Shown piece by piece: positions 31,101 through 34,100 of a DNA stretch of 64,000 nucleotides. The position numbers and the translations under genes were made by a program. The notes beneath the pieces are model-generated. The model did no database searches. It saw nothing but the letters and a program-made list of their open reading frames with translations, and was not told the origin of the DNA. Each line of letters opens with the position of its first letter. Positions within the stretch are counted from its first letter, which is position 1. Source of the stretch: Mugil cephalus (lineage: Eukaryota > Chordata > Actinopteri > Mugiliformes > Mugilidae). Location: assembly GCF_022458985.1 (NCBI RefSeq), contig NC_061789.1:15718357-15782356 (forward strand), given 5' to 3'.

Positions 31101-34100
31101 CCTACACTAGTCTCAGCTGCTTCTCTGATCCAGCCTCTCGTGCCGCCGCGCACACTTTCTCACTGCGTCCGTGCTGCGTTCAGGTTCTCGGACATCATCC
31201 TGGCCACCATCCTGGCCACAAAGTCGGACATGTGCGGGAAGAAGTTCGAGCTGAAGATAGACAATGTTCGATTTGTGGGGCACCCTACGCTCCTTCAGCA
31301 TCCTCCCATCATTCAGGTAGGAGGAAAGGAACCCCGGTAAAAAGACTTAGCAGTTCCTTCTGGTTTGTGCCACAAACCAAATGTTTTGTCAATTCACACA
31401 GCTAGATAAGAATACAAGCATGACTTGCCCTCTTCCTCCCCCATCTGGTGAAAAATAATACATATTCTGTATATACAATAAAATATTATAGTGAACTCAG
31501 ACTAGTTCTGCACAGAATAAACAAATAGTAGGTCAGGTGGTATATATCATATAGAGTGGTATATATCGCTGCAGAGTTTAAAGTTGTAGATATATATATT
31601 TGTGATGTGTGTTTTACAGTAGCTTCATAAGACACTGTATTGTATGTTTTTTTCTCCTCAATTCTTTACATTCAATGTATGTATTAACATCAGTGGTGCC
31701 CCCTACTGACTTTTTTTTTGTTTTTAGCCCAATTTACACACTGTTTACAGCTTATTTAACTAAGAGGGTGGTAATTCATACTGGGGTGGAGTGTGTGACA
31801 AGATGTGAGAAAACATAAAGCACTTCATTATTTCCTTATGAAAGCCACAAGTGACAATTACAGGAGCAGTTTAATTATTCTGTGGTTGGTGCAATACAAC
31901 CAGACTCACTGCAAACATTCAGTGTCGGATAAGCTCAGTGTATATGTAGTTATTGTACAGAGCTGCATGACATTGTGTGTGCCCATCTTTTATTTCCCCC
32001 CTTAAACGTTTTAACAAGTTCATTGTATCAGTCCCTTTATGTTACAAACATTATCCTGTTAAATGAAAAACTTAGCCATCTTTGAAAATTAAATATGTTT
32101 TGCCAAATTACGTAATTTACAAAAAAAAGGAGAATAAAAAGAATAAAAATAATTCTTCACAAAATAACACATTTGAATCATTATTATTTTTTTTTGTTGT
32201 TGTTCTTAAACTGGGGAGCTGAGTGGTTTGTTTTTTGACATTACATTTACTAAACTATGCCATTAATTCAAAAGTAGCAGAATAATTAACTAACCCTAAC
32301 CCCATGTATAAGTAAGAATAATGTTCCTGTGCTATATTTGAGAGTTGAAGCATTGACTGTACCGTATAGAAAACAACTGCAGATTAGCATTTTGTTGTAA
32401 AGACTTTTTTATTTTTGCATCTTGTGAAAAGTATGTCTTCTCTCTGTGCAGGTTTCTAAAACAGATCCTTCGCCTAAGAGGGAAATGCCAACAATGATCT
32501 TATTTAATGTTGTGTTTGCACTAAGGGTATGTACAAAAAAACAAAACAAAAAAAGTTTTTATCGTCAAAATGTTTAAAAGACACTGCTACTTAAAATGTA
32601 TATTAATATTTACATTTTAATGATGGTTAGCTGACTGTGGGTGGGACCCGTTGATTTTGTGTTAATCTGTTAATCTGTGTGTGCGGTGAATGGGAGGCCT
32701 GTGTGTGTGTGTGGGTGCGCGTGACTGATAATATTCCAGCCCACTCTATCTGTGAGAGCATGGGAGGACAGAGGGAGGAGGGGCCAGCTTATTATGCTTA
32801 ATCATGGCGCCCCAACAAGGCAGAGCCCGTTCCTGCCCATGCTGAGTCACTGTACCCAGTAATACCAGTATGGCCTGAGGAGGGCGAAAAGTGCTGAGTC
32901 ATGTTTTATCTGCCCAGCAACTGCTTTACTTGCCTTGTGGAAATTTCCAACTGTTATTCATTTTTATTAGCCAGTTAACTTGCAGGGGGTTTAAATGAAT
33001 TGCATTTAATTGACAATATTATTTCTATTAAATATATATAGTACATTATTGGATTAGATTGTCATTGTGCTGAGTACAGAACTAGTGAATAAATACAATT
33101 AGCTTCTAAGCAGAAGTGCAAAGAAAGTATTACTTAAAGTTAAGAAATGCACAGGGGGTAACAGTATTCAGGCTAAGTGGTTCTTTGTCCCACAGTCCCA
33201 CAGTATCAACACAGTTAGAGATATATATACATTTGTGTTATGTACAGAATGCACATGGTGTCATATTATATACAGAATATTTACAGAATATGTGCACAGT
33301 TGATGGGAGTAGTGGAAATTAAGGAGCATATATGTTTGATAGTTTAAAAAAAAAAACCAATAGCCTGAACATTTACAGAGCTACAAATGAGGTACAAAGC
33401 TGCCAAGGCCCAGTGTTTCAAACTAAGAGTCTAAGAGATAATCAGTTAGTTGTATACATGATGCTAACTTGTTTCTTTGTTAGTCACCCTTTATTTAAAA
33501 AAAATTTAAAAAAGTGTCTGCCTCTCCATGTTGGCCTCCGCAGGCAAATGCCGACCCGTCCGTCATCAGCTGCATGCACAACCTGTCGCGGCGCATCGCC
33601 ATCGCCCTGCAGCACGAGGAGCGCCGCTGCCAGTACCTGACCCGCGAGGCCAAGCTGATGCTGGCCGTCCAGGACGAGATCACCACCATGACAGAGAGTG
33701 AGAGCGCCTGTCACGTTCTGTCTCTGTCTGTCTGTCGGACAGCTTCATAGAGTTGTTTGCATTTTCTGACATATTTAATGTATTTAATGCACGCGTGCTT
33801 ACATCATACGTCCCTCACATTTAAGTTTTAAGCGTCTGTTTCTCCTGATGTCAGCAGATGGAAGCCCCCAGTCCCCGTTTAGACAGATTCTTCCAAAATG
33901 TAAGCTAGCCCGGGACCTGAAGGAGGCTTACGACAGGTGAACACGAATATATTTGTTTCATTTGTTGTTTATTTTCTGTGCGCTATATATTGAATGTAAA
34001 GCTTATGTTGCTATTGATGCGTTTTCAGCCTTTGTACAACCGGTGTGGTGCGGCTACATATAAACAACTGGCTAGAGGTCAGCTTCTGTTTGCCACACAA

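What the first reader, a model, noticed from the sequence alone, without database searches (positions are those of the whole stretch)
32640..32950. Candidate remote enhancer of the globin array (HS-40-like) in nprl3 intron 4
Two identical TGCTGAGTCA elements 52 bp apart, with three GATA motifs and GC/CACC boxes within 300 bp, sit in an nprl3 intron beside an array of ten globin genes. Established knowledge: the mammalian HS-40/MCS-R2 enhancer sits in an NPRL3 intron and uses paired NF-E2 sites with GATA1 and CACC factors. Inference: this is its fish orthologue and drives up to ten promoters from one side.
Basis: partly seen in the sequence, partly recalled or inferred. Interest (0 to 1): 0.75.

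Follow-up and report, generated by a model that had tools for sequence, protein, structure and literature searches.

The report
Fish globin enhancer inside nprl3
A short stretch in an intron of the fish nprl3 gene looks like the long-known remote switch that turns on haemoglobin genes in red blood cells, so it is a good new example of a known element rather than a surprise.

Summary
Two identical TGCTGAGTCA sites (32840, 32892; 52 bp start to start) and three WGATAR sites lie in one nprl3 intron, in a single-copy GC-rich patch. The CACC/GC-box part is weak. For this intron, 4 of 20,000 simulations gave two MAREs plus three GATA sites and 0 of 20,000 two full YGCTGASTCAY sites; over the whole 64 kb the figures are 18 of 300 and 0 of 300. 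Of ten genomic places with two close TGCTGASTCA, only this one has three GATA and two CNCNCCC sites. It is intron 5 if an in-frame 39-base exon is counted, otherwise intron 4. The locus is the teleost MN globin cluster.

Best explanation: the orthologue of the HS-40/MCS-R2 enhancer, already described in zebrafish and bowfin nprl3 introns.

Corrections: the array is cut by the window edge; seven more globin genes with three-exon hits and three fragments lie to the left, and the window's ten genes are five head-to-head pairs. Conservation in other fish, chromatin and activity could not be tested. Novelty: a new member of a known kind.

The parts
32639..32911 (.). Candidate enhancer core (HS-40/MCS-R2-like): the motif-bearing, GC-rich part of the nprl3 intron
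   Evidence: Motif content; GC 0.51 vs 0.32 for 32640-32950 against the rest of the intron; 32620-32960 has one match in the genome, itself
32840..32850 (+). MARE/NF-E2 site 1, TGCTGAGTCAC
   Evidence: 0 mismatches to YGCTGASTCAY
32892..32902 (+). MARE/NF-E2 site 2, TGCTGAGTCAT
   Evidence: 0 mismatches to YGCTGASTCAY
32795..32805 (+). Possible third, degenerate MARE, TGCTTAATCAT
   Evidence: 2 mismatches; one of 15 two-mismatch sites in 25300-42000, so weak
32726..32731 (+). GATA site TGATAA
32746..32751 (-). GATA site AGATAG
32906..32911 (-). GATA site AGATAA, 4 bases after the TGCTGAGTCA of MARE 2
32639..32645 (-). CACC-like match (CCCACCC on the minus strand)
   Evidence: CNCNCCC match
32713..32719 (-). 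CACC-like match (CGCACCC on the minus strand), abutting a GT run
   Evidence: CNCNCCC match; flank printed
32527..33543 (+). nprl3 intron 5 (intron 4 if the cassette exon is skipped)
   Evidence: 14-exon model with GT-AG introns; length 1017
28148..38622 (+). nprl3 coding region, 14 exons in the model
   Evidence: open frame of 593-594 residues; Pfam NPR3 E 5e-51 and HTH_NPRL3 E 2.1e-22
30429..30467 (+). In-frame 39-nt cassette-like exon 3 of nprl3
   Evidence: frame open with it (593 residues) and without it (580 residues)
548..25267 (.). Ten globin genes: five divergent alpha(-)/beta(+) pairs (alpha starts 1320, 8600, 12571, 16511, 24041; beta starts 2006, 9118, 12991, 16932, 24568)
24042..24567 (.). 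Nearest shared alpha/beta intergenic region (P5), likely target: CACC boxes on both sides, CCAAT, two GATA, no TGASTCA
1842..1848 (.). The only TGASTCA core among the seven alpha/beta intergenic regions examined (P1)

Best explanation
The stretch 32639-32911 in the nprl3 intron is the orthologue of the vertebrate HS-40/MCS-R2 enhancer. In red-cell precursors, NF-E2 (p45 with a small Maf) would bind the two MAREs and GATA1 the three GATA sites, opening the element and bringing it to the globin genes 7 to 58 kb away. Those genes include head-to-head alpha/beta pairs whose shared intergenic regions mostly carry CACC, CCAAT and GATA motifs but, in six of the seven examined, no TGASTCA core; the remote element would therefore supply the NF-E2 input. 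Shown here: gene order, intron, motif content, single copy, and that paired full sites exceed chance. Inferred: orthology to the mammalian element, factor binding, erythroid activity, and which promoters it serves.
For: Paired exact YGCTGASTCAY sites with three GATA sites. Within this intron 4 of 20,000 simulations gave 2 MARE + 3 GATA and 0 of 20,000 two full sites; 0 of 300 simulated 64-kb windows had two full sites in 310 bp. In the genome, 10 tandem rows (8 places), 1 convergent and 1 divergent place hold two TGCTGASTCA 25-55 bases apart; of these 10 places two (this one and one on C5) have three GATA sites in a 310-bp window holding both, and only this one also has two CNCNCCC. Single copy. 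Synteny kank2-globins-nprl3-mpg-rhbdf1 matches the MN cluster as described in PMC9670116 (passages). Prior reports: zebrafish NPRL3 intron element driving alpha and beta (PMC4199490, passages), bowfin ATAC peak for a putative MCS-R2 orthologue in nprl3 intron 5 (PMC8423624, passages), paired MREs in other vertebrates (PMC2975663, passages). Promoter motifs.
Against: No cross-species alignment, chromatin or reporter data could be had. Over the whole 64 kb, two MAREs with three GATA sites arise in 18 of 300 simulations, so motif density alone is not strong. CACC/KLF sites are weak and one abuts a GT run. The cod paper writes its single MRE into intron 5 of RHBDF1, not nprl3; I read this as a slip, and in the 144 kb examined no YGCTGASTCAY lies between mpg and the rhomboid exon (the third site, 72905, is past that exon). 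Linkage is not universal: in cartilaginous fishes Nprl3 is on another chromosome than the haemoglobin clusters (PMC13023373, passages).
Confidence: 0.87

Rival explanations
1. An intronic enhancer that serves mainly nprl3 itself (erythroid, or stress-induced through Nrf2 at the MAREs), with little role for the globins.
For: MAREs are also Nrf2/Bach sites (recalled). Mouse Nprl3 is upregulated by the alpha-globin enhancers in its introns (PMC11933693, abstract and passages), so nprl3 is a plausible target.
Against: The three GATA sites and the position beside at least ten globin genes favour a globin role; in mouse the same enhancers serve both, so this is more an added target than an alternative.
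Confidence: 0.08
2. Chance cluster of short motifs in a GC-rich patch with no regulatory role; the real globin enhancer lies elsewhere.
For: 18 of 300 simulated 64-kb windows hold two MAREs with three GATA sites in 310 bp; GC-rich patches have other causes; another MARE group exists at 49863-49939.
Against: It falls in the gene, and by one count the intron, where the element is known in other vertebrates; 4 of 20,000 and 0 of 20,000 for this intron; the other TGASTCA pairs within 310 bp in the 144 kb examined have at most one GATA site nearby.
Confidence: 0.05

Closest known systems
HS-40 / MCS-R2 alpha-globin enhancer (mammals)
   Same: In the NPRL3 gene upstream of the globin genes; GATA1 and NF-E2 are recruited to the remote elements (PMC4199490, passages); [quoted passage not shown]
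   Different: Would serve linked alpha and beta genes in head-to-head pairs, not alpha genes alone. CACC sites are weak here. From memory, human HS-40 has its two NF-E2 sites closer together and in opposite orientation; not tested.
Zebrafish globin LCR in the nprl3 intron (Ganis 2012, recalled; not held)
   Same: nprl3 intron, drives alpha and beta through a bidirectional promoter (as told in PMC4199490, passages).
   Different: Sequence could not be compared.
Bowfin MCS-R2 candidate in nprl3 intron 5
   Same: Same gene; same intron number when the cassette exon is counted (PMC8423624, passages).
   Different: Bowfin has ATAC support; here there is sequence only.
MCS-R1 (nprl3 intron 7 by recall of Miyata 2020, not held; named as the ancestral element in PMC11933693, passages)
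   Same: Same gene, same kind of element.
   Different: No MARE-type R1 candidate found: intron 7 is 92 bp in the model, and neither it nor intron 8 holds a YGCTGASTCAY match within two mismatches. An R1 without such a site would be missed.

Membership tests
HS-40/MCS-R2 orthologues | Lies in an nprl3 intron (intron 5) in the mpg-nprl3-globin block | tested here: met
   32639-32911 lies in 32527-33543 between exons 5 and 6 of a 14-exon model; Pfam names for nprl3, mpg, globin, KN motif and rhomboid. Intron 4 if the cassette exon is skipped; no transcript was seen.
HS-40/MCS-R2 orthologues | Paired NF-E2/MARE sites (YGCTGASTCAY) | tested here: met
   Two exact sites, 52 bp apart
HS-40/MCS-R2 orthologues | GATA1 sites close to the MAREs | tested here: met
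   Three WGATAR, one 4 bases from MARE 2
HS-40/MCS-R2 orthologues | CACC/KLF1 sites | tested here: inconclusive
   Two CNCNCCC but no CCNCNCCC
HS-40/MCS-R2 orthologues | Sequence conservation with other fish and tetrapods | not testable with these tools
   No other vertebrate genome is offered by the tools; own genome has a single copy
HS-40/MCS-R2 orthologues | Erythroid open chromatin and GATA1/NF-E2 occupancy | not testable with these tools
   No chromatin data at hand
HS-40/MCS-R2 orthologues | Enhances globin genes in erythroid cells and contacts their promoters | not testable with these tools
   Needs reporter, deletion or contact data
MCS-R1 orthologues | MARE-bearing element in nprl3 intron 7 (intron number and MARE content recalled) | tested here: not met
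   No YGCTGASTCAY within two mismatches starts between 32893 and 35934, which covers introns 7 and 8

The most novel reading that the evidence does not exclude
In this fish a single R2-type element, with no MARE-bearing R1 found elsewhere in nprl3, may be the only remote enhancer with paired full MAREs for about 17 globin genes over 51 kb, whose shared promoters have almost all lost or never had a MARE (one of seven examined keeps a TGASTCA core). The cluster would then be a natural single-enhancer system driving at least seven two-way promoters.
Probability: 0.25. Interest if true: 0.4.

Novelty: new member of a known kind. Interest (0 to 1): 0.25.

Why it matters
It adds one more teleost to the evidence that globin genes have kept a remote switch inside the neighbouring gene nprl3 since early vertebrates. 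The compact cluster, with near-identical shared promoters at growing distance from one candidate enhancer, would be a clean place to test how distance and promoter copies share one enhancer.

Tried and rejected
Second copy of the element (e.g. a duplicate beside a second globin cluster): one match in the genome, itself. Second nprl3: the NPR3 family search gave one exon only, that of this window; exons of a further copy could be missed. Other paired-MARE places as globin enhancers: the C23 pair has two GATA sites, but the 60 kb fetched around it gave only one globin match, of 25 residues at E 0.12; the roughly 3-kb loci at C1:17.88 Mb, C2 (two), C4, C5, C11 and C16 gave none at E up to 1; the C1 27.02 Mb repeat was not tested for globins. 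MARE group at 49863-49939: at most one GATA site. E-box/GATA composite: no CTG-N8-AGATAA in 32400-33600. RNA family in 28000-39000: none at gathering score. Tandem repeat at the element: none listed. Species: a PDB sequence search with one alpha protein gave no useful clue. Papers by Ganis 2012 and Miyata 2020 are not held, so what I say of them is recalled or second-hand. The LA globin cluster was not located because the globin family search did not complete. Searches for prior art. PMC3091688, PMC6884616, PMC7307600, PMC10256766, PMC11066237, PMC2529266 and PMC13023373 were seen as passages only and gave synteny or background; other listed papers were seen as listings only. A control (two GCTGASTCA in 310 bp, 19 of 300) counted palindromic sites twice and was replaced (3 of 300).

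Full report
Observation. The two TGCTGAGTCA elements are at 32840-32849 and 32892-32901, both on the + strand, and are the only two in the window (0.17 expected, 0 of 100 shuffles with two). They are 52 bp apart start to start. With flanks they read TGCTGAGTCAC and TGCTGAGTCAT, both exact matches to YGCTGASTCAY, the consensus printed in PMC2975663 (passages). GATA motifs WGATAR lie at 32726 (+), 32746 (-) and 32906 (-).

Chance. In the 64 kb this is the only 310-bp stretch with at least two TGASTCA and three WGATAR; simulated windows gave such a stretch in 18 of 300. Two GCTGASTCA-type cores in 310 bp, each core counted once, arose in 3 of 300 simulated windows and two YGCTGASTCAY in 0 of 300 (an earlier count of 19 of 300 counted palindromic sites twice). 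For this intron alone, two MAREs with three GATA sites arose in 4 of 20,000 and two YGCTGASTCAY in 0 of 20,000; for 310 bp of the element's own composition both counts were 0 of 20,000, while two MAREs alone arose in 10 of 20,000. In the 635-Mb genome TGCTGAGTCA occurs 2385 times (1214 forward, 1171 reverse). Two TGCTGASTCA 25-55 bases apart occur in tandem in 10 rows (8 places, as three rows are one repeat on C1), convergent in one place and divergent in one. Of these 10 places, two (ours and C5) have three GATA sites in a 310-bp window holding both MAREs, and only ours also has two CNCNCCC there. The element region has one match in the genome, itself. GC content of 32640-32950 is 0.51 against 0.32 for the rest of the intron.

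Gene context. nprl3 runs on the + strand with 14 coding exons in the model, GT-AG introns and one open frame of 593-594 residues depending on splice-site choice; Pfam gives NPR3 and HTH_NPRL3. Exon 3 is 39 nt; the frame is open with it (593 residues) and without it (580), so it reads like a cassette exon, though no transcript was seen. To the right lie mpg on the minus strand and a rhomboid exon (rhbdf1), to the left beyond the window a KN-motif gene (kank2). This is the MN cluster order given in PMC9670116 (passages).

Globins. The window holds ten: five divergent alpha(-)/beta(+) pairs. Five beta genes (148 residues each) and four alpha genes (143 each) were read as full frames; the fifth alpha (start 8600) was not caught by that script's start pattern and was found by tblastn over its whole length. 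The array is cut by the window edge: tblastn in the 60 kb to the left found seven further genes with hits across all three exons and three fragments, back to about -25.6 kb; their intactness was not checked. So 'ten' is a lower bound for the cluster and the outermost gene is about 58 kb from the element.

Promoters. Of seven alpha/beta intergenic regions examined (five in the window, two to its left), CCAAT occurs in 7, CACC-type boxes in 6, WGATAR in 6, and a TGASTCA core in 1 (P1, 1842); P3, P4 and P5 have TGACTCG at the matching place. P1 is the one that lacks WGATAR. The five in the window are 82-98% identical to each other, so they look like young copies. This fits a division of labour in which NF-E2 input comes from the remote element; that is inference.

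Other elements. The other TGASTCA pairs within 310 bp in the 144 kb examined, all at 49863-49939, have at most one GATA site nearby. No YGCTGASTCAY within two mismatches starts between 32893 and 35934, so there is no MARE-type candidate for the R1 enhancer (intron 7 by recall of Miyata 2020); intron 7 is only 92 bp in the model (33937-34028). An R1 built on other motifs would have been missed. A third exact YGCTGASTCAY lies at 72905, past the rhomboid exon.

What is known. PMC4199490 (review, passages) says that in zebrafish the MCS-R2 element lies in the NPRL3 intron and drives both alpha and beta genes through a bidirectional promoter. PMC8423624 (passages) shows a bowfin ATAC peak for a putative orthologue in nprl3 intron 5. 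[quoted passage not shown] I take that for a slip. PMC11933693 (abstract and passages) treats the nprl3-globin-enhancer linkage as over 500 million years old, while PMC13023373 (passages) reports that cartilaginous fishes have Nprl3 on another chromosome. The finding is therefore most likely a new species' copy of a known element.

Limits. The globin family search of the genome did not complete in ten tries, so the second (LA) cluster was not examined. The species was not identified.

Noticed in passing
left of window position 1 (L018, L019, L024, L025): The globin array continues left of the window: seven more genes with three-exon hits and three fragments down to about -25.6 kb, then a KN-motif gene, kank2.
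   Followed up: partly
30429-30467: In-frame 39-nt cassette-like exon in nprl3 whose inclusion changes the intron number.
   Followed up: partly
28062-28072: One-mismatch MARE (TGCTGAGTCGC) just upstream of the nprl3 start codon at 28148; no GATA cluster was looked for there beyond the window-wide scan.
   Followed up: no
1842 against 12825, 16766, 24400: P1 has a TGACTCA core where P3, P4 and P5 have TGACTCG; a one-base difference that may gain or lose a MARE in a globin promoter.
   Followed up: no
-27635 (+) and 35465 (-): CTCF-like cores pointing towards each other enclose the globin array and the element; 6 loose matches in 144 kb, and the one at 35465 resembles stretches seen elsewhere nearby, so weak.
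   Followed up: no
49863-49939: Three TGACTCA cores in 77 bp between mpg and the rhomboid exon, with at most one GATA site.
   Followed up: partly
72905: Third exact YGCTGASTCAY in the 144 kb examined, past the rhomboid exon of rhbdf1.
   Followed up: no
about 18000-20600: Tc1/mariner-like transposase remnant and a second, BED-finger-like transposon remnant between globin pairs 4 and 5 (read; the names are my reading, no family search was made).
   Followed up: no
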